Assembly (NCBI GenBank): GCA_005656395.1
Contig: SRSI01000003.1
Location: 372,001-436,000, forward strand
Length of the DNA stretch: 64,000 nt
DNA from: Strongyloides papillosus
Taxonomy: Eukaryota; Nematoda; Chromadorea; Rhabditida; Strongyloididae
Direction of reading: 5' to 3'
The notes under the pieces were generated by a model. It did not search any database. It was not told the origin of the DNA and was given only the letters and a program-made list of their open reading frames with translations. Position 1 is the first letter of the stretch, and every line of letters begins with the position of its first letter. Below are positions 40,326-58,530 of the stretch, one piece after another. The position numbers and the translations under genes are program-made.

Positions 40326-42656
40326 AATTAACCAGCCTTAGACCTGCCTTCGGCAGGTCAGAGCTGGTCCGCAAAGCTTGTTTTTTTCTAAATTATAAAT
40401 CAAAATATTTGTATAAAAATTGTTTTATCGAATTACATATTATTGGAGAAGTAGAATACCCAAAAAAACATTGTTTTAATATATGAATATTTCTGATTTT
40501 AAGGATCACTTTATAACGTCTATATTTATTGTAACTGTTTAGTTTAATAAAAAAATTACAAAACAAAAAGAATTTTACTAATATCTAAAGGGTGAATAAA
40601 AATGAATGTTTGAATCATTCCAAATAAATATTTAATTGATCTTCTATTATATTTTTAAGATTGATATAAACGATTTAATATCATTTTTCCATTAACAACA
40701 TATTTACCTTAATTTTACAATTGTTAAATGAGAAATAGCAAACTATTAATACCTAAAATAAGTTTTATCATTTTAAAGCTAAAAACTTCGTTATAGTTTC
40801 AAATTTAAAGTTAGGCTTTGAAGTATATTCTAAATTTAGTTTTTGTTACTTTAAATAACCATTATTAAGGTTAAAACATTAGGAAAATTTTATTTTTACT
40901 AATAAAAATGATCATCGTCTTTAGATTCATAACATAACTAATTTTTTATTAACCTTTTTAATATTAAATTTCCTTTTTATTCCATATTTGTACCTTCTAG
41001 ATAAGTTATAAAACAAAATTTCTTATTAATTTTGAAAAGAATTGTTTCTAAAACAAACCTTAACGAAACGTGTTCAAAAAATTGGTATTTTTAATAGATG
41101 ACTTTGTTAATTTTAGTTAAAAAAATTTAAAAGCTTTTTTTCTCTTCTTAAGCTAGAAAAGAATACATTTACTGAACATTAAACTATAAAAATTAATCAA
41201 GTTTGAATACAGTTATGCTGAAAACAAAACCGATATTTGTGTAAAAAATGAAGAAAATACAAGGAAATTGTCACTAAAATTAGTATAATCCGTTTCGCAA
41301 ATAAGCAATAAACTTTCCAATAGTTTGACTTTTTAAGTTAGACTTAAATTTATATAAAAGAAACTATATTTATTTAATTTTATAGAGATTCCATTAAGTA
41401 ATAGCTATTTAACATTTTAATTTTTACCAAAAAAATAGTCATCACTTGTTGACCCATAACTTGACTAATTCGCTATCAATCTTAATACTGCTGTGTTTCC
41501 CCCTTATTTTATGTTAGTATCTTTCTAATGAGTCATAAACCATAAAATTCCACTAACTTTGATAAGAGTTATTTCCGGAACAAAACTATGCAAAAATGTG
41601 TTTTAAAAGCGATGTTTTCTAAAAATAATTTCGCCAGTTATTTACTAAAAGTTTTGAGATACACTTTCCCCCCTAAGTTGAAAAAAAATACATCAAATGA
41701 CTATTTGACCATAAAAATTGATTAAGTTTAAAAAGAGTTATGTCTAGAGCAAAATTGACTTTTACAAAAGAAATAGAAAAAAGCAAGAAAAATGACACTA
41801 AAATTTGCATAAATCGTTTTCTAGATAAGCTATAAAATTTGCAATAGTTTCATTTTTTAAGTTAGATCTAGATCTATTTAATAAATATGTTGTCTATTTT
41901 ATTTTTATAAGTTACTTTAAAGTAATAACTATTTAACTTTTTAATTTTTATTAAAAAAATCGTTATTACTTTTTGCCCCATATCTTGGCCAATTATTTAT
42001 CAATCTTAATGTTATTGTGTTTCCCCTTTATTCCTGACTTGTACCTTTCAAATAAGTAGTAAACCATAAAATTTCATTAACTTTAAAAAGAGTTATTTCT
42101 GGAACAAAATTGATTTTTACAATAAAAATGGAAAAAAGGAGAAAAAATCAATATTCAAATTAATATAACTTCTTACGTAGTTGAGCTATAAACTTTCTTA
42201 GACCCTTGTTTTTTAAGTTAGACATAGATCTATAAAAACTGTATTACTTTATTTGTTTCCATCAAGTTATGACTGAATTATGATTATTTAACTTTTAAGA
42301 TGTTTTTTCAAAATGGTCACCACTCTTTGGACCATAACTCAGCCAATTATAAATCAAATTCAATATCATTAGGCTTCCGCACTATTCTGGAAGTATACCT
42401 TTCGAATGAGATATAAAGCAATTTATTTCGTTAACCTTGAGGAGAGTTAGTCGAGTAACAAAACTATGTAAAAAAGGCCCTAAAAAAGAGTGTTTTTTAA
42501 AGATAACTTGGCCAATTATGGCCCAAAACATTTAAGACCCATTTTACCCCTAAGTTAGAAAAAAACACATCTTTAAGCTATTTATTCATTAAAATCGGTT
42601 AACTTTGAAGAGAGTTATGTTGAAGACAAATTTTTTTTTCTTATTTCTTTTTGTTA
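40326..42656 (-). repeat. Satellite-like dispersed repeat, reversed copy with palindromic end
   Basis: Read on the minus strand it begins near 42656 with the same AGAAATAAGAAAAAAAA start as the other large copies. Repeated GAGTTAT-type segments lie at about 42614, 42090 and 41566, a period near 524 bp. It ends with the palindrome GACCTGCC-TTC-GGCAGGTC (40341-40359). It is longer and more diverged than the copies at 13 and 53.8 kb. No coding frame. Confidence 0.8.
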
Positions 42657-43470
42657 TAGATCAATTTTTAAACTTAAAAACGGTACAGATTTCACTTAAA
42701 AAATTCTAAGTAAAATAAGATGAAAGGTTAAACAAAGTCACGTAGATACACGACCGTTGCCTAGTTAGATAAAGCCGAATAAATATTTTCGTTAACCAAG
42801 ATGAAATTTAAAAATAAAATGAAAAATTTTAATACAGTCTCTGTTATAAAACGTTATTTATAATACAAATGGCATACTTATTTAATCTCTTTTTTATATC
42901 CTTAACTTCGAAACATTTCCTTTGTTATCAATAATATTATTATTCGGCATTAATTAAAAATCAAAAAAGACTGCAATAACGAAAACAGTATAAATATATT
43001 TATTTTAAAATTATATAAAAATACAAAAATATGAAGTATTGAAGAGTATTACCCAATTATACAACTTAAATAAATATATTTATTAATACAACTAAATTAA
43101 TTTTATTAACTTTGTAACAACACAAATAAGATTACAGATTTCAGAATACAATTTAGTTTTTATTATTCCACATATAAAAATTCAGAATCTCTTAATTTCT
43201 AGTTTCCAATGTATTCAAATTTTAAGAAGTTGCCATCGACTAAAAGAAAAATTTTTAAATTCATAAATTGTACATAGTTTTTTAAGTTTTTTATAGAAAG
43301 TATGCATTAAATTCTCCGATTTTTTTTAAAAAGATCATGTGCTAAGTATTTTTTTACTAAATAAAGTTTAGAATATTATAATTATACTTTTTGAAAATAG
43401 TAAACATTTAACATGGTATTATTTTAATGTTTATATAAATTTAAACTTAGTTAAACGAGAGAGACCTCGT
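42657..43470. other. AT-rich intergenic DNA
   Basis: No gene or element boundary is supported. Confidence 0.55.
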
Positions 43471-43479
43471 TTCTTTTTA

Positions 43480-43725
43480 TCTTATTTTGATGACCAAAAG
43501 GGTTATGTGACCCAGTCATTCTTACCATTTCTTTACCTATATAAGGAAGATTACCAAATCCTCCTGGCTTATTATTTCCTTCTCATATTATCAACCTGTT
43601 CACCCATTAATTGTCTACTACTATTCTCCCTACTACACTGGTGATTCTTTTTTGTATCCTATATTTTATATAATAAAGTTTCTATATTTATCACCTGTGT
43701 ACTATCCTTAGAAAAATTGGAGACC
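43480..43725 (+). promoter_or_regulatory. LTR-like or Pol II promoter/terminator block
   Basis: A GC-richer patch with TATATAAGG at about 43540, pyrimidine-rich stretches, and AATAAAG at about 43671 resembles a U3-R-U5 arrangement. TTGGAGACCAGGC just after it could be the start of a primer-binding site. I cannot find paired ends or a target duplication, and no coding follows, so a solo or partial LTR of another family is only a suggestion. Confidence 0.3.
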
Positions 43726-44587
43726 AGGCAAAAACTACTAAATTTTTGCTACTTAAATTACCAGTTTTAGTACTATTGCGTAGTTTAAAAATAAAAGAAA
43801 CCTTAAATTTATTGAATGATAATTTTCAAATAAGAAATCTTCTGTATCACGTTTATTTGACATAATATTGGAAATCATTTTTAAAAACACGTGGCAAAAT
43901 TATACAATGCAATTCACTAAATCAAAGAACAAATAAACTCTCATTAAATAATTTTTTCTCTCTACTTAATCTATTTTTTAATATTTCACATTGTTTTACC
44001 TTAGTAACACGTGGTAGTTTTTGACTATGTTCAGAAGATAATAATATCTTATTTATTTTTAACATATGCATTTTAATTGTTGTGAAAAAAAGTAAGTTTT
44101 TAAAAAGTTTTGTAATAACTTATAATTCAGACCACTGTTGTTAAAATTTTACAACAATAGTTAGAAAAGAAGGAGAAAGAATATGTCAGTGATATGAATT
44201 GTAAAAAAAAATTGCTTAAGTTGATGTACTTTTACTTTTTCAATCATTATTAAAAGGTATTTGTCAACAATTGATTTCAGTATAATCTTTCTTAGTCTAT
44301 GGATAGAACATCATAATATATTGTTTTCTTCGGCTATGAATATCTTGAAATGAACTAGAAACCTTTTTTCAGAAGTCACAAACAATAACAATGGATGCTA
44401 GGCTGTAATTAAAACATTTCTCTTCACATAAAAAAATTTAAAAAATAAACATACCACTCGCAAATCTCTGAAGATGGAATTTCGAATATATCTAGTTTTT
44501 GTCATTTCAAATTCTTATTAACTAATTAGGAATTCATAATTTCTAGTTCGGATGAACTAAAAGTTGTTATAAAGAACAAGTATTTTT

Positions 44588-44694
44588 TGTACACACCCAC
44601 GGATGTGTGTATATAAGTAATAATTATTTAGCATAAATTGTCATTCCTATTCTTTCTTTAAATAAATTCCTTTTCTTATCTAATATTGTTAACA
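44588..44694 (+). repeat. 5' LTR, 107 bp
   Basis: It runs from TGTACACACCCACGG to AATATTGTTAACA (TG..CA). It contains a GTGTATATAAG TATA-type box and a TTTAAATAAATTCC poly(A)-signal region. ACACA..TGTGT arms at the 5' end could form a small hairpin. It is unusually short for a gypsy LTR. Its alignment with the solo LTR at 38413 and the primer site directly after it fix both ends. Confidence 0.85.
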
Positions 44695-44712
44695 TGGAGG
44701 TTCCACCGAGAT
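44695..44712 (+). promoter_or_regulatory. Primer-binding site complementary to tRNA-Gln
   Basis: The 18 bases TGGAGGTTCCACCGAGAT are the exact complement of the 3' end of animal tRNA-Gln including CCA (acceptor strand, discriminator U, and the T-stem as I know them). They begin directly after the LTR. The annealed tRNA would prime minus-strand DNA synthesis by the element's reverse transcriptase. Confidence 0.88.
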
Positions 44713-44836
44713 CTGGTGGCGAGTAGATGGAGCAATCTGTCTACGGCTGCCAGATCTCGATGACGTGGAAGAAAACCGCTACCATAAAAAAAATTCATTA
44801 GTATAGTATGATCTTCGAAAAGATCAATCCTCAAGG

Positions 44837-45116
44837 ATGTCTAGAAAAGACCAAAAAGAGAACGAATTCCGTCAACCACCGCCTCCCGTGAAACCAGATA
44901 AGCCCATCAAGTAAGTTTGCCAAATGATAATCTAGTTTATGCAGGCGCGCCCCAAATACGGAGAAAAAAAGGTGGGGTTGATGCGGCGTATAAAAAGAAA
45001 GAAAATTTCAAGTCTGACACATTCTTTTCTTTTTACCGTTTAGTTGTTTGAATACAACTATTGCTGCTGCTGCCGAATTTACTTCAAAAAGTAAATTGAA
45101 TAATTTACCGTTATAA
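44837..45116 (+). CDS. Possible spliced upstream ORF in the retrotransposon leader, 48 aa
   Basis: An ATG at 44837 opens MSRKDQKENEF followed by a Pro-rich stretch. At 44911 a perfect GTAAGT donor occurs, and a pyrimidine-rich acceptor (CTTTTTACCGTTTAG) ends at 45043. Joining 44837-44910 to 45044-45116 keeps the frame open to TAA at 45114-45116. Unspliced, the frame stops inside the donor itself. The intron includes a GC-rich patch with GGCGCGCC and a TATAAAA box at 44989. The stop lies 2 bp before the first leader hairpin. Whether the peptide is made, or the element only regulates gag translation, cannot be told from sequence. Confidence 0.4.
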
Positions 45117-45118
45117 TA

Positions 45119-45330
45119 GTATTGACGATTAGTTGTCAATACCAATATTATCAATTAAATCATATCGACGATTCGTTTTCGATATTAAATATCTTATATT
45201 CACATTATTGAAGATTCGTCTTCAATAAATAAAATATTTTCAAATAAACAATCTAAAAACCGTTTATAAGATTCGTTTTATAAACTACATAATTATTATC
45301 ATCAATTTCATACGATTCGTCTTGTGAAAT
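45119..45330 (+). promoter_or_regulatory. Array of five hairpins with a shared GATTCGTY loop
   Basis: Hairpins lie at 45119-45142, 45162-45185, 45205-45228, 45262-45285 and 45305-45330. Stems: GTATTGAC/GTCAATAC; ATATCGA/TCGATAT; TTATTGAA/TTCAATAA; GTTTATAA/TTATAAAC; ATTTCATA/TGTGAAAT (one G-U pair). Loops are GATTAGTT, GATTCGTT, GATTCGTC, GATTCGTT and GATTCGTC; the second and fifth have a C-T mismatch just below the loop. Start-to-start spacings are 43, 43, 57 and 43 nt. The stems differ in sequence while pairing is kept and the loops are nearly fixed, the pattern expected of a structured RNA selected for its loop. They lie in the leader, ending about 240 nt before the gag ATG. A role in RNA packaging, Gag binding or translation is inferred. 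Confidence 0.85.
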
Positions 45331-45569
45331 ATAAATACTTATAACCACTGAATAAGCTACCAGTTTATTCTACAACAGACTATACTATACAGTATATACA
45401 CAAATAACAATATAAAGTTATACTTACTAAGTATACACATAAATAAAAACAAAACTGTCCTACTCTAACGAGTATACAAATAATTAAATAACTCTTTCCA
45501 ATAAGGAAATACAAATTAGACTGATAAACAGCAAAAACAAAAAGTAAAAGTGTTTGAACTTTGAGCGTA

Positions 45570-48500
45570 ATGAATACCACTAATAGTAATCCACTCCCAA
45601 CGGCTCCTAATGCCCAAGAAACTCCTAGATCCTCTAGGATGGCAAATTTCGATGCCATCTTCACCATTCGATCAAAACAATGGAAAGATGAGCAAAGGCT
45701 CCTATCAGTAGGACGAATTCCTACAAAAGAGGAAAAAAAGCGATTAATAAAAGCTCAAATGGATGAGTTAACTGAACTCATGGCATTATGTGAGATTCCA
45801 GAGGGAAGATCAGCCGTATTACCCGTAATATGGGACACGAGAAAAGCTGATCCGCTTCAAGACGAGTTGTCTAGAACAATATTAGGATATATTCAAAAAG
45901 GTGTTGTACTACAACCTTTTACAAAAGGATCAGATACCGATTTCAATAAGTGGAAAGATAAACTTTTCAACATGTTATCAGGCATAACTGCAACCGATTA
46001 TTCATTTGGATTAGCATGTGAAGTCTGTGTCAAATTCATTGACATCTTCATACCCGAATCTAGCGATGCTTACAGATTCTTAACACAAGTACGCCCAATG
46101 TTTTCTGATGAAACAGGGAAACTAAAAGTAGGTACTCAATTACCTGCATTGTTAGAAGCTGTATATCTTCAAATGAGAAGCTCTGCTACAAAAAGCAGAA
46201 CCCAGATGTTGGCAAAGAGACCATATTGGCACAGACGCACCGATAACATGGTAAAATTCATAAAGAAATACGAAAAGTATCTTCAACAACGATTCGATGT
46301 AACATCAATAGATGCATATCTTAATGACAACCCAGCTCTCATGAGATCTGAAGTCATGAACTTCTGTGATGCAGTACCTCACATAATTCGCAAAGAAGCG
46401 AGAATCGAGTTAGGAAGAGACTGGAGATGGAATGAGTTCACCAATCACTTTACTGAAGCTGAGTCTTCTTTAGCCTATCATAACCCAAATTATAAAATAA
46501 ACAAAGGGGATGAGGCAATAGATATCGACAAGACAAGCGATAAATATAAACATGATAATAATAAAAGCCATAACAATAATAGGCATAAAAATAATTACAA
46601 TAAAGGTAATAACCATAAAAACCATAACAATAATTATGATAAGAATAGACAAAAAGGTAAAAATAACTATACTAAACATAACGGTAATAAAAATAATCAC
46701 GGAAACGGTGGTAACCGTGAGAGGAACAACGCTAAGAGTAATAATAATAACTCTAATAATAACTATAAAAATAATAGTAAAACCTACATTAAAGGTAAAG
46801 GTACCAAAAATGGCAAACAACACTCTGGTACAGTCCAGGTGAATAGCGTTGAGGAAGCATCAATGGCAGATTACGTCAATAAATTGGTACTTACTAGTTT
46901 AGCCAATGCGAAGTACAATATGACGTTAATGATGGCCTGCATTATGCTCATCCTGTTGCCAATGACAAGTGCAACATTACCACTCAGCTATGAGGTTGAA
47001 CCGTGCGATCAACCCATGGCTCCTGCATTCTATGCTCTCGCTAAATGGGACGCCAAAATAGCGACAGCAGCTCAATTTAGAGTAATACCCCCAGCCTGTT
47101 TTCCAGTGGGAAGATATGAAATCACTGGCACGTTAATGCATCAAATACTTATACGGGAAAAACCCGGAAATAAGATTTCTGAGATAGCCTTTCAGAAGAA
47201 ACGCGTAAATGAATGCAATTACAAAAATTTATACGTTAGTAAAGATGGTACCTGGTATGAGAAATCACCAGAACAAGGACCTAGTGTGGCCAATGAGGCA
47301 AAACGATACATCGACATGGCAAAAGCATACAATGCTAAATGTAAGCCCAAAAAGACGACAGGAGCCAAGGCCAAGGCACCTGAAAACGTCATATCAATTA
47401 ATTCAATTGATAGTGTATCATTACCTAGTGATAAATCCAAAAAGTCGGATGACGAAATGAGCATAACAAGCGAAACATCCGATGGATCACAAAGGACAGC
47501 ACAACCATTAAGTGCTGATAGCTTCAAACTTCCTGAATACGGGAAGAATAATATGGTAGATAATCTCCGTAGCTCCGGCCAAGAATATGAGGCTGAAGCC
47601 AAAATACAATTCAACGGATTACAACGGTATGCTAAAGGTCTCGAAGAGATGATAGCAGATACCATTAACAAAAAAGATAAATGGTTAAGTAATGACATAT
47701 TACTCAGAGATGCTCAACAAAAGGTAATAGAGTTAGAGAAATCAGAAAAATCTCTTAAAACACAATTAGAATCTAAAAATACAGAGTTAAGTAATACTCA
47801 GACAGATCTTCGTAATACTAAAGATCAGCATCAAAAACTATTAAAAGATAAAGATGATCGCATTCGTGACGAAATAAATACTCATAGAGATACACAAAAA
47901 CAACTAAATGATTGTTTAACTGAAAGAAATCAGTTTGAATTAGATCTACAAAGGGAAACAGATAAGGCAAAACAATGTCTTGATGATAAAAAGGCAATTG
48001 AAGAAATTGCTGAAAATAGGAAAATCCTTTTAGACCAAATATCGACAGATAGGAGTAATGAACCTCCTAGCGTTCAAACAGATGAGTTAAATAAATGTCT
48101 CGATGAAAAGAATAAGATGACTGAAACACATCTTAAAGAAATAAACGATCTTCGTAAAAAATGTGATGATGACAAATCTGAGTTAAATAATAAATTAACA
48201 TCTACACAGCATGAGTTAAATAAATACGATTCATTACGTACCAATACTTACCATAATATAAAAAAGATAACACACGAAATACTAACTATTCAAGGGATAC
48301 CAAAAGGTACAGCCTGTATCCATAAAGAAGCTCTTATATATAGACTTAATAACGTAGAAGGCATAATTGATACCACACAGGAATTAGAGTACTTAAATGT
48401 AAACGATCTTCGTAAACAAATACAACAAAATAAAAAAGAAGACAAATCTAGTTTCACAGACCAATTGAATAATTCAATTAAAAATCTAAACTTTGAGGGT

Positions 48501-49457
48501 AAAGGACTAGATTATGAGTCCTTTCTATCATTCCTCATTGGGGTATTTTCTGCCATAGCAGGCAGAATGGCTAAAGAGAAGATTGGGGGCACAATCTCTC
48601 GAACAGTAGCACGGTTAAGAACACCAAATAACGTATCGAATGATCCTTTCGGACCAGGAGGAAGTGGTATACCTCTGGTACACCGAGTTTCGGAATATTC
48701 ACGTCCGATCCAAAATGGAATAACAGTAACACGATCAGGTGTTCGGGAATATCCTGTATTTAATATTACAGATTCCGATAGTAAGACATTATTACCAACG
48801 GTAGATGTCCAAATTAGTGATGTCGAATTTAAAGCACTGGTAGACACAGGTGCAGCAATTAATATGATCAGCAAAACGGTAGCTGACCCATTAAACCTGG
48901 AAATACATAATTCCGATATAGCAGCAGTATCTGCATCTGGCCATAATATTAACATAAATGGTTATACCAATGTCGACATTACCTATAGAGGTGAAAAATA
49001 CAACGTTCGTTTTGAAATATGCTCTATACCATTAAGGTATGAGATAGTATTGGGTTATAAAACAATAAGACATATTGGCATAGGAAAATTATTCCTAGAT
49101 GAAAAATTAAATCATAATAAAAATTCTATCTTCACTGAAGAAGAAATAAAAATTAAACCCAACAGTTGCACAATATTTCATGTCACTTTGAAAAACAAAC
49201 ACATGAACAATACTGATGTATCAGTAAAAATAGATAAATATTGGAAAGAATCTAATATGTTGCTTACAATGGAGCAACTATGTAAAGTACATGATAATAA
49301 AATACCCATAGTGGTATTAAACGCTGGAAAAAATCCAGTTAAAATACCAAAACATTCTTATATTGGTGACGTTTTTGCAATTGAGGAAATTGATAAAGAC
49401 ACTTTACGTGTCCATAGTGAGGAAATAATTCCGGAAGACGCGGATTGGGAAGATTAA
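45570..49457 (+). CDS. Gag-protease polyprotein with envelope-like and coiled-coil segments
   Basis: The ATG at 45570 (MNTTNSNPLP) is the first Met in frame; an in-frame stop lies just upstream at 45555. Domains in order: capsid-like helical region (to about 46500); Asn/Lys/His-rich low-complexity region (46520-46830), probably RNA-binding in place of a zinc knuckle; a strongly hydrophobic segment (MTLMMACIMLILLPMTSA, about 46920-46975) followed by a Cys-containing ectodomain-like stretch; a long Glu/Lys/Leu/Gln-rich coiled coil (about 47700-48260); a second hydrophobic stretch (FLSFLIGVFSAIAG, about 48520); and a retroviral-type aspartic protease with FKALVDTGAAINMI (about 48830-48870). The membrane-type segment and coiled coil between gag and protease are unusual. 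The frame ends in TAA at 49455-49457, and pol continues in the same frame. GC content is clearly higher than that of the flanks. Confidence 0.8.
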   Translation: MNTTNSNPLPTAPNAQETPRSSRMANFDAIFTIRSKQWKDEQRLLSVGRIPTKEEKKRLIKAQMDELTELMALCEIPEGRSAVLPVIWDTRKADPLQDELSRTILGYIQKGVVLQPFTKGSDTDFNKWKDKLFNMLSGITATDYSFGLACEVCVKFIDIFIPESSDAYRFLTQVRPMFSDETGKLKVGTQLPALLEAVYLQMRSSATKSRTQMLAKRPYWHRRTDNMVKFIKKYEKYLQQRFDVTSIDAYLNDNPALMRSEVMNFCDAVPHIIRKEARIELGRDWRWNEFTNHFTEAESSLAYHNPNYKINKGDEAIDIDKTSDKYKHDNNKSHNNNRHKNNYNKGNNHKNHNNNYDKNRQKGKNNYTKHNGNKNNHGNGGNRERNNAKSNNNNSNNNYKNNSKTYIKGKGTKNGKQHSGTVQVNSVEEASMADYVNKLVLTSLANAKYNMTLMMACIMLILLPMTSATLPLSYEVEPCDQPMAPAFYALAKWDAKIATAAQFRVIPPACFPVGRYEITGTLMHQILIREKPGNKISEIAFQKKRVNECNYKNLYVSKDGTWYEKSPEQGPSVANEAKRYIDMAKAYNAKCKPKKTTGAKAKAPENVISINSIDSVSLPSDKSKKSDDEMSITSETSDGSQRTAQPLSADSFKLPEYGKNNMVDNLRSSGQEYEAEAKIQFNGLQRYAKGLEEMIADTINKKDKWLSNDILLRDAQQKVIELEKSEKSLKTQLESKNTELSNTQTDLRNTKDQHQKLLKDKDDRIRDEINTHRDTQKQLNDCLTERNQFELDLQRETDKAKQCLDDKKAIEEIAENRKILLDQISTDRSNEPPSVQTDELNKCLDEKNKMTETHLKEINDLRKKCDDDKSELNNKLTSTQHELNKYDSLRTNTYHNIKKITHEILTIQGIPKGTACIHKEALIYRLNNVEGIIDTTQELEYLNVNDLRKQIQQNKKEDKSSFTDQLNNSIKNLNFEGKGLDYESFLSFLIGVFSAIAGRMAKEKIGGTISRTVARLRTPNNVSNDPFGPGGSGIPLVHRVSEYSRPIQNGITVTRSGVREYPVFNITDSDSKTLLPTVDVQISDVEFKALVDTGAAINMISKTVADPLNLEIHNSDIAAVSASGHNININGYTNVDITYRGEKYNVRFEICSIPLRYEIVLGYKTIRHIGIGKLFLDEKLNHNKNSIFTEEEIKIKPNSCTIFHVTLKNKHMNNTDVSVKIDKYWKESNMLLTMEQLCKVHDNKIPIVVLNAGKNPVKIPKHSYIGDVFAIEEIDKDTLRVHSEEIIPEDADWED

Positions 49458-49472
49458 TTACCTCCCTATCCA

Positions 49473-52287
49473 ATGTCTTCTGAACCTCTATCACAAGAGG
49501 CATTCGAAACTCTGATAACATCATCAAACTTGTCCGAAAAAGGACATAAAGAATTGATAAAAATACTATGGCGTAATCGCGTAGCTTTCCATGAATATGA
49601 TGGTAAAAGTGGACTATACAATGGCCCACAACGGTTAAAGATCGATCTTAAAAACACGGATGATATCCCTAAAAAGATAAAACCTGCTCGAATGAGTAGA
49701 GAAAAGGAAAATGAAATCAGCAAACAAATAGCTGATATGCTTGCAAATGGCATGATAGAACCTAGTCGTTCTCCCTATCTCTCACGAGTAGTATTAGTCC
49801 GTAAAAAGGACCAACAATGGAGATTTGTTGTAGATTTCCGATATACAAATAGTTTAATAAAACAACAATCCCATGTGATTCCTCGCATCGATCGAATTAC
49901 AACTGAAGCAGCTGGAAAGCGCTTCTATACCTCCTTTGATTTAAAGGCAGGCTTCCATCAAATACCATTAGATGACAACAGCAAACAAATTGCTGCCTTC
50001 GTTACACACGAAGGAATTTTCTAATACAAGGTAATGCCTATGGGTCTCACAGGTAGCCCAGACAAATTTCAAGAAATTATGGACGAAGTCCTTGATGGCA
50101 TTCCAGAATGTTACGTCTACCTTGACGACATTCTTACGTGCAGCAACGATGAATCTAATCATCTAAACGCTATTAATCAAATATTACAACGTATCATTAC
50201 ATATGGTATGAAAATTTCTCTCGCCAAATGTCAATTTAGCCAAAACAGCGTTAAATATTTAAGCTTCAGATTAGACTCTGAAGGAATTCATGTTAATCCT
50301 GAAAAGGTCAAAGCACTACAGGATAAACCAGTACCAAGAATTGTAAAAGAAGTTAAAAGCTTCCTTGGCGCTGTTTCCTACTTTAGGAAACATATTAAAA
50401 ATTTCGCTGCAATAGCGGCACCTCTATACGGTCTTGAAAAAGACTTTAAATGGGAACAAAAGCACACGGATGCTTTTGAGGCCATGAAAAAGGCATTAAT
50501 AGATGCCGCAGTATTATCACCACCTGATAATACCAAAAATTACACAATTTTCACTGATGCTAGCTTCCAAGATTTAGGAGCAGCTTTAACGCAACAAGGG
50601 CGACCAATAGCTTTTGCATCACGATCTCTGAAACCAGCAGAGAAAAATTATCCAATAATAAAACTTGAGGCATTAGGTCTAGTATATGCTCTCAAGCAAT
50701 TTCGTCCATACATTTATGGCAAACACACGTTAGTGATTACAGATCTGTTGAGTTCGGAGCACTTCTCCTTAAAGAGTGCTCCTATTTTGTCTTCCACTGA
50801 AGACATAAGAAAGAAGAAAATAGAAGGAAAATAAATTTTATTTGTGTAAAAAATATCATTATTTATAAATAAGAGCATATATAAAATTATAATATTATTG
50901 TGTAATATTTAAATTTTAACAAGATCACAAACCATTACTATCTTTATTAAAGAATAAAGAACTTGAAAGTATTCTGCAAAGATACCAAATGGCTATCATA
51001 GAATATGATCTAACAATACAATATGTAAAAGGTAAAGATAATGCAGTAGCAGATTATCTTAGTCGTAACGATTTTCTATCGATAACAATTAAGGAAGAAG
51101 CATTTAAAGATGTTTTCCCTGATATGGTAACACCATATGATAAACCTTATATCATAGAAAATATGAAACATCATCTTAGCGATGACGAAGCTAAAAAGGC
51201 CAAAGATGGCATTTTCACTTTAAAGAAAGGTGGAATACGAGTATATGTACCATCTCTTCTTAAAGAGAAACTATTAAAAAGGTTTCATAATTCAGTTACA
51301 CTAGGTAATCATTTAAGCTTGGCCAAAATTGGACCAAAATTTAAAGAAATATTCTATTGGGAATCAATGAATTCAGACATGAATAAAATATGGACTGCAT
51401 GTGACATTTGTAATGCTAGTAAACATCATGTAGGAAGACTAGTTGAAACAACTAAAAGACACCTTCCAACGGCACCAGGAAATTGGGCCATATTAAACGC
51501 AGATTATATGCAAGTAGATGATGAAAACATCTTAGTTATAGTTGACGAATACAGCAAATTTGCTTATGCTGTGGTAACAAAGAACCAAAACGGTCCTACA
51601 ACAAGATTACAATTATCTAGATGCTTTACGACATTAGAATTTCCATTAATCCTAAGAAGCGATAATGAACCTGCTTCAATTTCAAAAGCTGTACAAGAAT
51701 ATACAACATCAATAGGTGTTGAACAACAATTTGGTTCACCATATAACCATAAAAGCAATGCTTGTGTTGAAAGATTCAACAGAACGATAAGAGAAGCCAT
51801 TCGTGTGGAACGATTAATAGCTAAACAGGAAAAGAGAAATCCTATGATGCTTAGTGATATTGTTTATCACTTTACTTATGCTTATAACAGATCGAAACAT
51901 CTTACAACTGGTATTGCACCAGCAACTTTGTTATTAAATACACCAGACAACTTAACAAATAATATTTCCATTCATAATGGATATAGTGGCATTTTGCAAC
52001 TATATAAAAACACTAAAACAGAGTTGATAGATAATGATACCAGAAGAAAAGGTATACAAATACAACCTAACGATCTTGTTATGAAGAAAGTAGTTAGTAG
52101 AAAAGACACTTCTACATCTAATAAAAACCAACCTACTTGGGATGGTCCTTATAAAGTCATCCAACGATTATATGGAGACACATATGAAATCGAGAAACTT
52201 GGGAAATCTCGTAAAACTAGACAAAATATTGAAAAAATTCATGGAGATATGCTAAAATTGCACAATAATCAAAGTCATAAGACATGA
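49473..52287 (+). pseudogene. Pol (RT, RNase H, integrase), interrupted by a stop and a nested LTR
   Basis: Same frame as gag-protease. RT runs from about 49680: RWRF-like motif (QQWRFVVDFRYTN), FTSFDLKAGFHQI, then a TAA at 50022-50024 within the segment before MPMGLTGSP, and YVYLDDIL (about 50115). RNase H has FTDASFQDLGAAL and a LEAL block, then is split by the insertion at 50746-50921; its remainder (HKPLLSLL...) follows. Integrase has an HHCC-type region (FHNSVTLGNH...ACDIC), catalytic D in NADYM, D in RSDNEP and E in ERFNRTIREAI, and a C-terminal barrel with WDGPYKVIQRLYGDTYEI. The stop is TGA at 52285-52287. RT copies the RNA, RNase H removes it and integrase inserts the DNA. The breaks make this copy non-functional as read. 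Confidence 0.9.
50746..50921 (+). mobile_element. Nested solo LTR, 176 bp, in the RNase H domain
   Basis: The insert starts TGTTGAGTTCGG and ends ATTTTAACA (TG..CA). It is flanked by a perfect 5-bp duplication AGATC (50741-50745 and 50922-50926). It interrupts the conserved TDHKPL region of RNase H, and the frame agrees on both sides when insert plus duplication (181 bp) are discounted. It contains two small hairpins (GGAGCAC/GTGCTCC at 50756-50782; GTCTTC/GAAGAC at 50789-50804), an AATAAA word and a CATATATAAAA box. It is unlike the 107-bp LTR, so it comes from a second LTR family. Confidence 0.85.
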
Positions 52288-52448
52288 CTTAATATCATAA
52301 ATAAACCAATTTAATACATAACAAATAAAAGTCCAAGACAAGACTTTAATAATACTAAATGATAATTTACACGATTGAATAAATAAAATTTTTATTTCAA
52401 CAACAAAACATTATCGTTTTTAAAATAAAACATAATGAGAAAAAAAAA

Positions 52449-53603
52449 TTAAAAGAAAGAGCCTTCAGCAGCAGAAGACCTAACTTTCTTTCGCTCAACC
52501 TCGAGCTCAGCAATGTCATCCGGTAATTCACATTTGGCAAACTTCTTTATTTGATGGGAATTCTTGTAGTAGACAGTTCCTATTCTATTGAAGAAACTGT
52601 TCTTTTGGACAGCTACGTTTTCTGTGATTACCTGAGCATTGTATTTCTTATCAGGAACGATGGCTACACGGTATGGCAAGTCCAACGAGGCTGCAGCTCG
52701 GATATGCTTCTCACATAAGCACTTATGTGGTTTACAAAGTGAAATAATCACTTTGATAGGAACACTTTTATCCAGCTGAGACAATATTAGCTTCAAGGTG
52801 TCACAACTATTGACGATTAAAGTCTGTAAAACAGACATTCCTGACAAACTTAATGTTGATTTTCTTGATGGTACAATAATTCCCTCTATCCATAAGAGAT
52901 TTAAGTTTCCGGGCAATTTTCCAGACAGATGGCCAGAAGTATGCTTAATCTTCAATTCAGTAAGACTTGGCAAATTAATAGTAGCTGGAAAATTGATAAT
53001 TCCTGAACCATTTGTGCATACTAATACACGTACTGCATCTATCTTCGCGATAGATTGATACATCGCCATTACTTCCTCAGTGGTACGCACAACAAGATAA
53101 TCCAATCTCCTCGGAATGCTGGCTTTTGCACGAGTGCCAATGGCGTCCGACTGTTGAGCATTTGGTTCGCCCTGAAAAGCAGCCAATAATGCCGCCTTAC
53201 GGCGAACAAAAGCAAGCCGAGCATCATGGATGCTCGACAAATCATCGAACTTTCGAAGCACATTAATGTGCGATTCGCTACCCCATAGCAATTTCCGCTC
53301 CATAGTGACCACTTCTTCTCCCAACTCCATTAGGATATACACCGACTCCAGGGTGGCATTCAATCCTCTCATGGTTTTGAAATAACGTCCCATGATGACG
53401 TCAACATCAGCTTCTCCTTCAAGATCCATCAGGTTCAAAAAAGCTAAATCATCCTTATCATCAGGTTGGGTTGGTGGAACTGGAGGATCGTTGATAGCCG
53501 GCGCATTTATTCGTTGACGACGCTTTCGTTCATTAACTTGAGAACCTTGGTCTTGCTCATCATCATTTAACAATGCGTTATCTGCGTGGTCATGAAGAGA
53601 CAT
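52449..53603 (-). CDS. Antisense gene downstream of pol; unrecognised 384-aa protein with LRR-like stretch
   Basis: The first ATG in frame is at 53603-53601 (MSLHDHADNALL); the open frame begins slightly earlier at a TTG, and a stop lies upstream at 53654-53652. The N-terminus is acidic and probably disordered, with a basic KRRQR patch near residue 26; a helical region follows (FKTMRGLNATLESVYILMEL). Residues about 210-280 have leucine-rich-repeat-like spacing (LPSLTELKI, LPGNLNLLWIEG, MSVLQTLIVNSCDTLKLI). A Cys cluster (KPHKCLCEKH) follows. I recognise no family. The gene is intronless, much richer in GC than its surroundings and similar in that respect to gag-pol. It lies where an LTR element would have env or its 3' LTR, but on the opposite strand. 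It may be a retrotransposon antisense gene or an unrelated neighbour. Confidence 0.65.
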   Translation of the reverse strand: MSLHDHADNALLNDDEQDQGSQVNERKRRQRINAPAINDPPVPPTQPDDKDDLAFLNLMDLEGEADVDVIMGRYFKTMRGLNATLESVYILMELGEEVVTMERKLLWGSESHINVLRKFDDLSSIHDARLAFVRRKAALLAAFQGEPNAQQSDAIGTRAKASIPRRLDYLVVRTTEEVMAMYQSIAKIDAVRVLVCTNGSGIINFPATINLPSLTELKIKHTSGHLSGKLPGNLNLLWIEGIIVPSRKSTLSLSGMSVLQTLIVNSCDTLKLILSQLDKSVPIKVIISLCKPHKCLCEKHIRAAASLDLPYRVAIVPDKKYNAQVITENVAVQKNSFFNRIGTVYYKNSHQIKKFAKCELPDDIAELEVERKKVRSSAAEGSFF

Positions 53604-53654
53604 GCTTGGGGATACAATGGATTTCAAAAATCTAAAATGACAAAAAGTATATTA

Positions 53655-53667
53655 AATATATATAAAC
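53655..53667 (-). promoter_or_regulatory. TATA-like box for the antisense gene
   Basis: TATATATAAACAT on the plus strand (TTTATATATA on the minus strand) lies about 55 bp before the ATG at 53603. A start of transcription near 53625 would fit. The evidence is weak because the region is AT-rich. Confidence 0.35.
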
Positions 53668-53817
53668 ATATGGAAAATATAGTATAACGTATTAATTAGC
53701 AATAAATACAATAGACAAATAAATTGTTAAAAAAAAAAAAAAAACTAAACTACGTAATAGTAGCAAATTAACTTTTATAATACCCTATCTTTTAATTGGG
53801 GGTGAAAATACACATAG

Positions 53818-55680
53818 TCTATAACAAAAAGAAATAAGAAAAAAAATTTTGTCTCTCTCATAACTCCTCTCAAACTTAACCGATTTTTATGAGTAAATAG
53901 CCAAAAGATGTGTTTTTTTCTAACTTAGTGGGGAAGATAGGTCTCAAAAGTTTTTGGGCCATAATTGGCCATGTTATCTTTAAAAAACATCGTTTTTTTA
54001 ACCTTTTTTAGCATAGATTTGACCAGGGGTAAACGTTATTTCAAAATAGATAATATATAACAGTTTATATACCATTTGAAAGGTCTACTACCAGAATAGG
54101 GGGGAAACACAATTCTATTGAATTTTAACAAAAATTGGCGGAGTTATGATACAAAGAGTGGTGACCATTTTTAAAAAATGATTAAAAAGTTAAATAGTTA
54201 TATCTTAGTTAAAACTTGATGAAATGAAATAAAATAGTATCTGTTATATAGATATTAGTCTAACTTAAAAAACAAGTATCTAACGAACTTTATAGCTCAA
54301 CTATGAAAGAAGTTATATAAATTTGAATGTCAATTTTTTTGCCTTTTTTCTATTTTTATTGTAAAAATCAATTTTGTTCCAGACATAACTCTCTGCAAAC
54401 TTGATCAATTTTTATGCTTAAATACTCATTTGATGTATTTTTCTTCAACTTAGTGCGGAAAGTGGGTCTCAAAACTTTTGGTTCATAACTGGACAAATTA
54501 TTTTTAGAAAACATCACTTTTTTAGACACTTTTTTGTATAGTTTTGTCTTTCAGAAAACTTTTGTAAAAGTGAACGGATTTTTTTGGTTTTTAACTCATT
54601 TGAAATGTGAAAGTCAGGAATAAGGGGGAAACTTAATAGATTTTGGATTAATAAAGAATTAGTAAAGTTATGGGTTAATTAGTGATGATCATTTTTTCAA
54701 TAAATAATAAAAATTTAAATAGTTCTTAAATAATGGAAACTTGAACAAATAAAGTAAACATAATTTTTTTAATAGATCTAGGTCTAACTTAAAAAATGAA
54801 ACTATTGCGAAGTTTATAGCTTATCTAGAAAACGATTTATGCCAATTTTAATGTCATTTTTCTTGCATTTTTCCATTTTAATTGTAAAAATCAATTTTAT
54901 TCCAGACATAACTCTCTTCAAACTTGATCAATTTTTATGGTCAAATAGTCATTTGATGTATTTTTTCCTAACTTAAAGGGGAAAATAAGTTACAAAACTT
55001 TTGGTTTTCAATTTGACCAAGTTATGTTTAAAAAACACCAATTTTCCGAAACATTTTTGTATAGTTTTTACCAGAAATAACTCTTTTTAAAGTTAATGGA
55101 ATTTTACTGTTTATGACTCACTTGAAAGATACAACTCAGAAATAAGGGAGAAAATAAATACTTAAAAGATTTATAAAAAATTAATCAACTAATGGATCAA
55201 AAGATGATGATCATTTTTTTAGTAAAAATTAATATTTTCTAATATTATAATTTTATGCAAAGTTGTTTAAAGAAAATAAAACTAATGTTAGTATATATAA
55301 CGAAGTCTGGCATAAAATATAAAAACTATAGCAAAGTTTGTAGCTTAAAAATGAAAGAAGTTATTTTAAAGTATTAATTTTTTTGGTTGTTTTTTCATTT
55401 ATATATTTGTAAAATTCAGGTAAATATGCAATTAACAAAAGAATGACATTGAATTGTTTATATCAATATCAAAATTACAATGAAAAGCCATTTAAATAGT
55501 TACTTGAATTAATTCAAATACTTATTTTTATTCAACTTTTGGATATAAATAAGATTCTTTTTGTTTTGTAATTTTTTTATCTAGCTAAATAAGTTCAATA
55601 AATGTAAACATTATTAAATGATTTTCACAATCAGAAATATTTAATATAATAATACATTATAACAATGTATTATTTTTGTA
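53818..55680 (+). repeat. Satellite-like dispersed repeat, longest plus-strand copy
   Basis: The first about 520 bp are nearly identical to 12989-13510. The segment CATAACTC..CAAACTT..ATTTTTATG recurs at 53859, 54384 and 54907, a period of 523-525 bp. The copy runs on to ACAATGTATT, also seen at about 14295 in copy 1, but the terminal palindrome of the other two copies is missing here. No coding frame. Confidence 0.82.
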
Positions 55681-55759
55681 AACAAAAAATTATTTTTAAT
55701 TTATTTATAATAATAATTATTAATATTATTAATAACTTTAATATTCTTGCCCTGAGGAA

Positions 55760-56092
55760 TCATGACAAGTGGTCCATCTGCTTTTTTATTTTGAAAAAAT
55801 TTTTTTTTCTCCACTTTTTTTTCATTTCCTTTACCACCTCCTTCTTCACCTCCTTCTGCATCTCCTTCTTCATTTCCTTCTTTTTTTCTTTTTGCTTCTC
55901 TCTCCTTTTTTTATTTTTCTCTTTCGTTTGCTGCTTGAACTTTTCCTCAGCTTTCCTTCTTAATTCTATCAAGTCCTCCCCTGGATTATCATTGCAAATC
56001 TCCAGCTCTTTCATTAACTCTATATTTTAAAAATATTTTTTAATTATAAGAATATACTTACTTAAAATCTTCTTTTCCTTCCACGTAGACAT
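55760..56092 (-). CDS. Small spliced Lys/Glu-rich coiled-coil protein, 96 aa
   Basis: Exon 1 is 56092-56062 and exon 2 is 56019-55760, joined across a 42-bp intron (GTAAGT..ATATAG) with consistent phase. The product starts MSTWKEKKILK, then ELEICNDNPGEDLIELRRK, and continues as a long run of Lys/Glu-rich heptad-like sequence (KKEMKKEMQKEVKKEV). That suggests a single charged helix or coiled coil. The pyrimidine-rich coding repeat could equally be a simple-sequence expansion that happens to be open. The correctly phased intron and the normal start argue for a gene. It lies between the satellite block and the Helitron. Confidence 0.42.
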
Positions 56093-58500
56093 CCTGATAA
56101 TTTAGAAATTTGAATTTTTTCTTCAACAAAATAATAAAACAATTTTAATTTAAAAAATTTATTCAATATATACATTAAATTCTACAATAAATTTGAATAA
56201 TCATTTAAAATATTAAAATTCATACAATAAATACATTTAATATTAAAATAGATTTGAATAATTAATTAAAATAATAAAATTCAAACAAAAAAATTAAATA
56301 CAAGATGTTTAAATAAAGAAAGTGATAATATTGATGACAATTATTAGATTAAGTTTAATATATAAATTAAAAAAAGGTTTTTTTGTTATTTTAAGTTAAT
56401 TTTATTTTATAAGAGTTGTTTTTATATTTAATTTAATTGTTATATATTATTACAGTGCCGTAAAACTTAACAAACTTATTACTATAATTAAATATATAAA
56501 ATTAATTTCAAATTCCACCACAGACAAGAATTAAGAAGAATTTTTAATCAAATAATAGTTGAAAATAAAAAATTGAAACTTTAGATTTGTATCAGTATTT
56601 TGTGTAATTAATTTTTTATGTTTTAATGTTTAAAATAAAATATTTATCAAAACTTTTTGTTCATAATCTATGATCGTTTTATTAACAATTTTAAAATAAA
56701 TTCATTTTTCATATGCCTTTTTAAAATCTTAAATGATTTTATAGCACATAATTATCTATTACAGATTTTGTGATTTTATATTTATGATAAAGTTTAGATT
56801 TTCAAATGATATTAATAATAATTAGATTATAATATTATTTTATTATTAATAAGAAAAATTTAAATGTTAATTTCATAATATTTTTTACTAGACATATTAT
56901 TATTGTGTTATAAATAACTTTCTTCAAAGTTATTAAAAGTTTTTAGACTAATAATGTTTTAGAAGATAACATTCAGGAATAAGAAGAAAACTTAGTATTA
57001 AAAAAATTGATCATTAATTGTCTAAGCTGTCGACCAAATTTTGTACATGTTTTCTTTCAAAATTTTAATATAAAATATGTGGATATTTTAATTTTTTATT
57101 GTACGACTGATATAAAATTTAAATAACTTAAATAAATATTGTAATTTATGTACATTTAAAATTTATATAAGAGTTGTGTTTTTTTGATTGCAGTCATAAA
57201 ATTTTATTTATAACAAATATGCTTATGCCAGATATTTTTCGGTACTTCCCCAAAATTATTATATTAATTAACTAATAATTAGAAATTTTCATTAATCAAA
57301 AAATAGGTGATTAAATTTATATTTAAATTTTTAACGTGCTATTTATTTAATCTATAACAAATTAATTTGAATGTTAATTTTATAATATTTAGTTTATTAG
57401 TAATGCTATTATATTTTAATTAAGAGTTTCTTTAACTTATTTGCTATCTCTAAATATATGTTTTGTATGTCATTATTTAAAATATTTATTTGTTTAAAGT
57501 TTTCCCTCCCCCATTATTTTATATATATTTATCTTACAGGCTATTCTTATTGTGTTTTCTAGATCATTCATAATTGCTTATTCATTATTTTATTAATATT
57601 GAAAGTTTATTTTTATTAATTTTAAAAGATTTAATAATATAGTATATTGGTTCATTTTTATAAACTTTTTCCGGTACTTTTTCGTTTTGATATCTTACTC
57701 AAAAACGTGATTTTTGGTTATTAAATTATATTTACATATTATTCTTATTAAAATACACCTTACGTAACAATGTTTATATTATTTATTAGTAATTGACTTT
57801 ATCAATTTTTGCTAGAGGAAGCAAACATGCTACAATATCGCGCAATACTTACTCAAAAATATAATATTCTATGTTCATTTTCCACAAAGTAAAGTTAGTT
57901 AAAAATTATTTACCATATTTCTAGCTGTTTTTCGTGCTTTTATTTCTTCACTTGGTGATACTCCTTTTATTTAAATTATCAAGGTGTAAGCTTTTATTGC
58001 AGAATCCACAACGTTACGTTCGCAAATAACTTTAAAATAGATAAAATCTTAAGCCTTCAGTTTATTAAACTTTAAGAATCTTCAACTATAATAATGAATT
58101 GTTGAATTTTCCTTATCAAGGATCTCAATAATTGCCATCAGGGTCTTGAAATCTTTATTTAACATTGTGTTAATGAATAGTTTACCATCTCTACTACACA
58201 CCTATCCAAATTTCTATAGATATAATTAATTTAGCTTAGTAAAGTTATAAAAATTTAGTTAAAATTATTTTTTGTTTTAGAATTTTCCTCATTGTCACTG
58301 AGAAAGCATCACATAATCATTTTTACCATTGAAATTCAAATTTAAAAATAGCTTTACCGAAACAAATATGTACCAAATTATAAGTTTAAACATTTTGTCA
58401 CTTTAAATCTCATATTAATTAAATTTTCCATTAATATCGTTCTTATAAATGTGTTTTTTATCTTATGTTTGTAATAAAAATTATTTTTTACTAATTTTTT
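56093..58500. other. AT-rich DNA upstream of the Helitron gene
   Basis: No gene is supported. A pyrimidine run ending in TTTTAATTTTAG at about 58511 could be a splice acceptor just before the protease ORF, so a 5' non-coding exon may lie in this stretch. The Helitron 5' terminus (expected TC at an A/T site) cannot be located by eye. Confidence 0.45.
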
Positions 58501-58530
58501 TTTAATTTTAGACAGAAAAAACAGGAGAAA

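What the first reader, a model, noticed from the sequence alone, without database searches (positions are those of the whole stretch)
45119..45330. Five regularly spaced hairpins with a common loop and compensating stems in a retrotransposon leader
Seen directly: five perfect or near-perfect 7-8-bp stems, all different, each presenting GATTCGTY (once GATTAGTT). Starts are 43, 43, 57 and 43 nt apart. Conserved loop, varied but paired stems and regular spacing are the hallmarks of a selected RNA structure. I know of no described gypsy-type leader with such an array. It could be a multivalent Gag/packaging signal, a translation element between the upstream ORF and gag, or a protein-binding array.
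Basis: partly seen in the sequence, partly recalled or inferred. Interest (0 to 1): 0.92.

Follow-up and report, generated by a model that had tools for sequence, protein, structure and literature searches.

The report
Same-loop RNA hairpin chain in retrotransposon
The leader RNA of a mobile element in a parasitic worm carries a row of small hairpins whose stems change but stay paired while showing the same loop, and a sister element carries a row with a different shared loop, which points to a built-in docking platform, perhaps for the element's own coat protein.

Summary
The window lies in a Strongyloides genome, most likely S. papillosus. The five hairpins sit in the leader of a Ty3/gypsy element, between its primer-binding site and gag.

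Ten copies found in the genome carry 3 to 7 GATTNGTY units each (54 in all, 21 distinct). Across the distinct units all 7 arm pairs change on both sides, and 90% of arm cells pair. An exact whole-genome pattern for neighbouring units hits only this family. Three copies of a sister family (gag 47-51% identical) carry an array at the same place with a different common loop, ACACCA, and stronger covariation. One orthologous hairpin has a TACACC-type loop in four copies and GATTCGTC in six, so the loop has switched on a conserved stem position.

The array lies in a 586-nt AUG-free stretch that begins at a TATA box, so a second promoter for a gag mRNA is possible (inferred). RNA-level selection is well supported; the binding partner is not shown. 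I favour a multivalent Gag docking/packaging platform (just under even odds), then translation control. The paper searches made, whose lists were capped, showed no description of such an array.

The parts
44588..44694 (+). 5' LTR, 107 bp (TGTACACACCC...GTTAACA), with a TATATAAG box at 44610
   Evidence: Left edge of homology at 44585-44588 in seven of nine other copies (44650 and 44658 in L030 and L029); the same sequence recurs at the 3' end of L018 (76%) and L024 (88%); nothing convincing in window 52300-60000 (best E 0.026)
44695..44712 (+). Primer-binding site TGGAGGTTCCACCGAGAT, directly after the LTR
   Evidence: Position; TGGAGGTTCCA (or TGGAAGTTCCA) also in the other leaders searched for it; tRNA not identified
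44837..44914 (+). Upstream ORF of 25 codons (MSRKDQKENEFRQPPPPVKPDKPIK) and stop
   Evidence: start, most codons and stop kept in the six aligned leaders
44911..44918 (+). Splice-donor-like GTAAGTTT overlapping the uORF stop (GTGAGTTT in L031)
   Evidence: splicing itself not tested
44989..44997 (+). TATA box TATAAAAAG in the leader; predicted start about 45015-45025 (inferred)
   Evidence: same in five of the six aligned leaders, TATTTAAG in L031. Four other TATA[AT]A lie further down the AT-rich leader, so the motif alone is weak evidence
44984..45569 (+). AUG-free stretch up to the gag start codon
   Evidence: ATG at 44727, 44760, 44808, 44837, 44924, 44939, 44981, then 45570; 0 in 45030-45569 against 7.4 expected from composition
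45041..45060 (+). Flanking hairpin TAGTTGT/ACAACTA (other loop)
45076..45097 (+). Flanking hairpin AATTTACTT CAAA AAGTAAATT
45119..45142 (+). Array hairpin 1, motif GATTAGTT
   Evidence: model hit
45162..45185 (+). Array hairpin 2, GATTCGTT
45205..45228 (+). Array hairpin 3, GATTCGTC
45262..45285 (+). Array hairpin 4, GATTCGTT
45305..45330 (+). Array hairpin 5, GATTCGTC; its ortholog in L027, L029, L030 and L031 has a TACACC-type loop
45350..45370 (+). Flanking hairpin GAATAAGCT ACC AGTTTATTC
45570..49457 (+). gag-protease ORF of the same element
   Evidence: aspartyl protease near the C-terminus; no CCHC zinc knuckle among hits with E up to 0.01
49473..52287 (+). RT, RNase H and integrase, in three separate ORFs in this copy

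Best explanation
It is a selected RNA hairpin array in the leader of a Ty3/gypsy retrotransposon of Strongyloides (well supported). Each short AU-rich stem lifts the same loop (GAUUCGUY, in effect a UUCG tetraloop closed by two inner pairs), mostly every 39-57 nt. The stem sequence is free to drift as long as it pairs. The number of units changes by tandem duplication and loss, and the loop is kept largely uniform within a family but differs between families. Most likely mechanism (inferred): the loops are repeated binding sites for the element's own Gag, so several Gag molecules assemble on one genomic RNA and select it for packaging, as dispersed packaging hairpins do in other RNA-packaging systems. 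The loop would change together with the Gag of each family. A possible additional feature (inferred) is a second, internal promoter at 44989 that makes a gag mRNA without primer-binding site and begins just upstream of the array.
For: Covariation in 21 distinct GATTNGTY units chosen by motif only: 92.6% of 189 cells paired against 74.8% shuffled (0 of 500), 7 of 9 pairs with a change on both sides (1 of 500), score 0.489 against 0.167 (0 of 500), slid registers at most 0.125. The two innermost pairs are fixed by the choice of motif; of the 7 arm pairs all 7 change on both sides and 133 of 147 cells pair. Sister-family units with loop ACACCA: 88.7% of 168 cells against 45.5%, 8 of 8 pairs changed on both sides, score 1.027 against 0.237 (0 of 500), slid at most 0.320 (21 of 22 units). 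+ strand folding beats shuffles in 10 of 10 regions of 8 leaders (z -4.5 to -10.0; minus strand -1.8 to -4.8). In the ten leaders 54 GATTNGTY lie in sense and 1 in antisense, outside the array (L031); in the three sister leaders 22 ACACCA and 0 TGGTGT. Arrays by the exact pattern occur only in this family in 58 Mb (32 hits in nine of the ten copies). Loop identity follows the Gag family: GATTCG copies have gag pieces 86-100% identical to the window's, ACACCA copies 47-51%. Loop switch on a conserved stem position. Position between PBS and gag, the usual place of packaging signals (recalled). No zinc knuckle among the Pfam hits of gag, so recognition may rest on RNA structure (inference).
Against: No binding or packaging data exist here; Gag as partner rests on two families only. 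The array is downstream of the inferred internal start, so a gag mRNA would carry it as well, which fits translation as easily as packaging. Some units have uncompensated mismatches: the arm pair next to the motif is unpaired in 9 of 21 units (C.U in 8, A.C in 1), and one ACACCA hairpin has an A.C mismatch in 2 of 3 copies. One unit in L031 pairs only partly (21 bits). In the variable arms G.U (4) hardly exceeds A.C (2) in the first family, and it is 6 to 4 in the second. The raw energy of the minus strand is lower in all ten regions. Two of the five shuffle measures are not exceptional (388 and 211 of 500). Units are related by descent, so they are not independent.
Confidence: 0.47

Rival explanations
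1. Translation element: the array is the 5' UTR structure of a gag mRNA started at the internal TATA box. A chain of weak AU hairpins with a common loop binds a host or element protein and sets the rate of scanning or initiation at gag.
For: 0 AUG in 540 nt against 7.4 expected, with 7 AUG in the 335 nt upstream. Last upstream AUG and a TATA box nearly coincide in the window (44981/44989), L027 (-596/-588), L030 (-627/-619) and L064 (-300/-281), more loosely in L065 (-210/-145). Hairpin-rich leaders also in distant families.
Against: AUG avoidance shows scanning or purged uORFs, not that the hairpins act in it. In L066 and L067 the nearest TATA-like box is about 87 nt after the last AUG, L068 is AUG-free from its PBS on, L063 has an AUG at -51, L069 lacks the box. 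A uniform loop is not needed for a scanning barrier. Loops differ between families of one host, which speaks against one host factor.
Confidence: 0.25
2. Binding array for a host RNA-binding protein (localisation, stability, nuclear export), with family-specific loops reflecting different host partners or escape from one.
For: Uniform loop with free stem, turnover of units, and array identity of 69-79% beside 99-100% in the upstream leader in L023, L027 and L030.
Confidence: 0.15
3. DNA-level array (insulator or transcription-factor sites), as in the Drosophila gypsy leader with its repeated Su(Hw) sites.
For: Same place in a gypsy-type element (recalled; search listing); the array lies just downstream of a TATA box.
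Against: Arms of varied sequence keep mirror complementarity; double-stranded DNA binding would conserve arm sequence instead. + strand z-scores are stronger in 10 of 10 regions.
Confidence: 0.08
4. Neutral amplification of a DNA palindrome by slippage and recombination between element lineages, without function.
For: Tandem pairs of units 81-83 nt apart in L029/L030; the leader is mosaic or fast-changing.
Against: Double changes at paired positions, the same loop on different stems, a second family with another loop.
Confidence: 0.05

Closest known systems
Retroviral and Ty-type packaging (psi) leader structures
   Same: Hairpins between PBS and gag, in the genomic RNA, likely bound by Gag
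   Different: Here 3 to 7 units (up to 9 in the sister family) share one loop and vary in number; retroviral psi has a few distinct hairpins (recalled). [quoted passage not shown]
Multiple dispersed packaging signals of single-stranded RNA viruses (MS2, STNV, enterovirus) and HBV
   Same: Many stem-loops presenting a motif to a coat protein (search listing with starts of abstracts only)
   Different: Those are dispersed over the genome; here they form one chain in the leader of an LTR retrotransposon
BARE two-TATA retrotransposon of barley
   Same: Two TATA boxes giving distinct RNA pools, capped and translated from TATA2, uncapped from TATA1 (PMC3735527, abstract and one section seen)
   Different: BARE belongs to Ty1/copia (recalled) and has both boxes in the LTR; here the second box is in the leader and only inferred
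Drosophila gypsy insulator in the 5' untranslated region
   Same: Repeated sites between LTR and gag (recalled; listing)
   Different: DNA-binding sites, not compensated stems (recalled)
Sirevirus palindromic repeated motifs
   Same: Repeated palindromic motifs in non-coding parts of LTR elements (PMC2829016, passages seen)
   Different: CGG-CCG core in LTR or near env, discussed there as transcriptional; no varied stems with a common loop in the passages seen

Membership tests
Ty3/gypsy (Metaviridae) element | gag-protease, RT, RNase H, integrase in that order | tested here: met
   Pfam hits in order along the + strand; RT split over two ORFs in this copy
Ty3/gypsy (Metaviridae) element | LTRs and primer-binding site | tested here: met
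   107-bp 5' LTR and PBS; of five 3' stretches searched, full LTR in L018 and L024, a 38-nt part in L022 and L028, none in L026; none in window 52300-60000
Selected RNA structure | Stem pairs that change on both sides across related units | tested here: met
   with shuffle and slide controls
Selected RNA structure | Folding better than shuffled sequence on the transcribed strand | tested here: met
   10 of 10 regions, z -4.5 to -10.0; the minus strand also beats its shuffles, z -1.8 to -4.8
Retroelement packaging signal | Located in the genomic RNA between PBS and gag | tested here: met
Retroelement packaging signal | Binds Gag and is needed for packaging | not testable with these tools
   Needs protein and RNA
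Retroelement packaging signal | Downstream of a splice donor so that spliced RNA lacks it | tested here: inconclusive
   GTAAGTTT at 44911, and GTAAGTTT directly before the array in L063, L069, L070; no RNA data
Drosophila gypsy-type insulator | Repeated conserved double-stranded DNA site | tested here: not met
   6 of 28 columns are invariant, all in the motif by which the units were picked; three arm columns are 90% conserved; the arms otherwise vary with compensation. Su(Hw) sites themselves were not searched
Known Rfam family | Match above the curated score | tested here: not met
   43000-46000: 3 weak hits (E up to 5), all below gathering score and all on the minus strand

The most novel reading that the evidence does not exclude
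A retrotransposon lineage carries a self-renewing, multivalent RNA recognition array whose units multiply and are lost while the loop 'password' is kept uniform within a family and is swapped between families (ACACCA to GAUUCGUY), one hairpin at a time, in step with the element's own Gag. It would act as a genome-identity code that lets sister retrotransposons in one nucleus package only their own RNA.
Probability: 0.3. Interest if true: 0.9.

Novelty: new variant of a known kind. Interest (0 to 1): 0.74.

Why it matters
How Ty3/gypsy elements choose their own RNA for packaging is poorly defined: a 2016 review says so for Ty1 and Ty3 (PMC4974528, passages). Here a single nematode genome offers natural loop and stem variants, two loop 'alphabets' and copies with 3 to 7 units, so recognition, multivalency and loop switching can be tested directly on short RNAs.

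Tried and rejected
Rfam: no family above its gathering score. Phage records: no match. Loop pairing elsewhere: the exact 7-nt complement ACGAATC does not occur on the + strand of the element, nor does TGGTGT; the 6-mers CGAATC and AACGAA occur once each, and wobble pairing was not tried, so long-range pairing is not supported rather than excluded. A conserved tandem DNA repeat was considered: three units in the window are 64-73% alike to a fourth, and in L029/L030 pairs of units repeat every 81-83 nt, so duplication explains number, not pairing. T-arm mimicry was considered from memory and dropped. An env gene behind pol was looked for in the window and five 3' stretches: the longest ORF behind integrase runs antisense in each; plus-strand ORFs of 100-171 codons also occur there and were not examined. 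No copy with the array but without gag was seen: the array hits (best candidates only) fall in ten copies, and all ten have gag hits. The 25% family (L071, L073-L075) has a few long hairpins without a common loop. L062 showed no array because its array lies further upstream; it was found in L070. The ACACCA triple pattern alone is not specific (40 hits against 26 for the reversed control). Regions of the distant families were chosen after I had seen their hairpin lists, so those counts lean towards structure. Literature: searches listed no paper whose title or abstract start describes such an array; several lists were capped (10 of 127, 10 of 31, 8 of 14, 10 of 11, 6 of 11).

Full report
Where it is. 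The window is part of a 58.2-Mb genome in 79 contigs; the window itself has 25% GC. The antisense ORF behind pol is 100% identical over 85% of its length to a protein named S. papillosus, and gag has only two relatives in the protein search, S. venezuelensis (76%) and S. papillosus (45%). I take the genome to be most likely Strongyloides papillosus; that this very gag is not listed for that species speaks mildly against it or for gaps in the protein set. The element is Ty3/gypsy: LTR, PBS, gag-protease, RT, RNase H, integrase. Its copy in the window has pol in separate ORFs and no detectable 3' LTR in 52300-60000; copies with one long open frame exist (four of 2181-2183 aa).

The observation. 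All five hairpins are present at the given place. The 'loop' GATTCGTY can itself be partly paired: G and A with Y and T, so the RNA would be a 10-bp stem closed by UUCG (UUAG once), or a 7-8 bp stem with a C.U mismatch and then these inner pairs. Hairpins with 8 bp or more number 7 in 45030-45569 against 1.03 expected (maximum 4 of 200 shuffles). Further hairpins with other loops precede and follow the array.

Related copies. The array search and the gag search place ten copies of the family in the genome (window plus L017, L019, L021, L023, L025, L027, L029, L030, L031); the search scores only its best candidates, so this is a lower bound. In that order they carry 5, 5, 5, 5, 7, 7, 3, 6, 6 and 5 GATTNGTY units: 54 units, 21 distinct. 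The leaders hold one antisense occurrence, in L031 outside the array. Spacing is 39-57 nt, apart from gaps of 91 (L027) and 72 (L031). A pattern search of the whole genome for two exact GATTCGTY 25-55 nt apart gave 32 hits, all in nine of these ten copies (not L027), against 2 for the reversed control. A covariance model of the unit, run over the window and 23 held loci (not the genome), gave 23 hits: 22 array units and the reverse strand of one of them.

Covariation. The 21 distinct units were chosen by motif alone, not by pairing. Nine pairs were counted: 92.6% of 189 cells pair (shuffled 74.8%); 7 pairs change on both sides (1 of 500 shuffles reach this); score 0.489 against 0.167 (0 of 500); slid registers reach at most 0.125. 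The two inner pairs are fixed by the motif; in the 7 arm pairs 133 of 147 cells pair. The units are paralogs as well as orthologs, so they are not independent draws; the slide control keeps relatedness. The arm pair next to the motif is unpaired in 9 of 21 (C.U in 8, A.C in 1). Orthologous examples: hairpin 5 ATTTC/GAAAT in the window against ATTCC/GGAA in L023; hairpin 4 outer pair G-C in the window, A-T in L031, and another compensated pair in L027.

Sister family. Three copies with gag pieces 47-51% identical (L063 on C8, L069 on C6, L070 on C24) have an array at the same place with the loop ACACCA. 22 ACACCA were found in these leaders (7, 6 and 9), and no TGGTGT: 18 sit at the tip of a stem in one register, three (one per copy) on a stem that I read as bulged, and one in a shifted register. 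21 of the 22 entered the count, the shifted one was dropped: 88.7% paired against 45.5%, 8 of 8 pairs changed on both sides, score 1.027 against 0.237 (0 of 500), slid at most 0.320; two measures were not exceptional (388 and 211 of 500). Elsewhere in the window 21 ACACCA have at most 6 of 8 flanking positions paired. L070 carries a mariner-like insert inside its array (read by eye). L063 lacks two units that L069 and L070 have. More distant families (gag 28-34%) have hairpin-rich leaders without a common loop, as L066 (6 hairpins against 1.88 expected, maximum 6 of 200, region chosen after seeing the hairpins); the 25% family has few.

Loop switch. In the alignment of six leaders the last array hairpin sits between the same flanks in all. 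The window and L023 show GATTCGTC (as do L017, L019, L021 and L025); L027, L029, L030 and L031 show TACACT, TACACC, TACACC and TACATC, near the sister family's ACACC. So the loop changed on a conserved hairpin position. This suggests, but with so few lineages does not prove, that the ACACC type is older and that the array is being made uniform.

Fast or mosaic block. Against the window, L023, L027 and L030 are 99-100% identical from PBS to the TATA box, but 79%, 75% and 69% in the array with many gaps; L029 and L031 differ in both parts (86% and 85%, then 70% and 70%). Gag is 98% identical at protein level in L023, L027 and L030. Recombination between lineages at the array, rapid turnover, or both would do this.

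Transcripts. Everything between the LTRs of a retrotransposed copy has passed through its RNA, so the array is in the genomic RNA (established knowledge of LTR elements). In addition a TATA box at 44989 stands where the AUG-free stretch begins (last ATG 44981, next 45570): 0 AUG in 45030-45569 against 7.4 expected, 7 AUG in 44695-45029. The same coincidence is seen in L027, L030 and L064, more loosely in L065; L066 and L067 have the nearest TATA-like box about 87 nt after the last AUG, L063 has one AUG at -51, L068 is AUG-free from its PBS, and L069 lacks the box (the window itself was not measured because my slice was too short). Four other TATA-like hexamers lie further down the window's leader. 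I infer an internal promoter for a gag mRNA; no RNA was examined.

RNA or DNA. For RNA: compensated arms of varied sequence, motifs in sense, z-scores stronger on the + strand in 10 of 10 regions. The constant inner G-U or G-C pair (15 and 6 of 21) follows from the motif chosen and is weak support. Against a clean strand signal: G.U against A.C in the variable arms is only 4 to 2 and 6 to 4, and the raw energy of the minus strand is lower in all ten regions. A hairpin in single-stranded DNA during reverse transcription is not excluded.

Mechanism. Shown: hairpins kept paired, common loop per family, variable number. Inferred: that the loops are read by a protein; that this protein is Gag; that many sites give cooperative packaging. 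The choice of Gag over a host factor rests on the loop following the Gag family (two families), on position, and on the absence of a zinc knuckle among Pfam hits. Translation control is the main rival because of the AUG-free leader.

Known or not. The searches named in Tried and rejected listed no description of such an array in a nematode or gypsy-type element; lists were capped and the library lacks most subscription journals. I rate it a new variant of a known kind (leader hairpins of retroelements), with an unusual array form and loop switching.

Noticed in passing
window 52449-53603 (-): Antisense ORF of 384 aa behind pol, inside the element; long in 5 of the 6 3' ends listed (in two pieces in L018); relatives 57% (S. 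papillosus) and 58% (S. venezuelensis); no Pfam hit for the window ORF; pS 0.76 against pN 0.34 between the window and L022 variants (dS saturated), but 0.09 against 0.06 between L022 and L028. Possibly an antisense gene of a gypsy element.
   Followed up: partly
window 41243-42660 and 53818-55278: Repeats with a period of about 524 nt flank the element in inverted orientation (70-93% complementary over the pairs listed); homology of the element to L024 ends at 53823, at the repeat.
   Followed up: partly
window 44837-44918: 25-codon upstream ORF whose stop overlaps a splice-donor-like GTAAGTTT, kept in six aligned leaders (GTGAGTTT in L031); the sister family has GTAAGTTT directly before its array.
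   Followed up: partly
window 45570-49457: After its basic, Asn/Lys-rich part the gag ORF holds a signal-peptide-like hydrophobic stretch (MTLMMACIMLILLPMTSATLPLSYEV) and a Cys-containing part, then a coiled-coil-like part, before the protease: unusual for gag (read by eye).
   Followed up: no
window 43436-43750: Stretch with TATA box and AATAAA-like signal that recurs 73% identical in L031 (5833-6151); looks like a solo LTR of another element (read by eye).
   Followed up: no
window 11751-12563 (-), 21923-22798 (+), 59795-63994 (+): ORFs that look like mariner and Tc1-type transposases and a Helitron helicase (read by eye).
   Followed up: no
L063-L075 leaders: TGGAGGTTCCA primer-binding site recurs in all the leaders of other gypsy families searched for it; tRNA not identified.
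   Followed up: no
leaders L023, L027, L030: Array block 69-79% identical beside 99-100% identical upstream leader: mosaic or fast-evolving block.
   Followed up: partly
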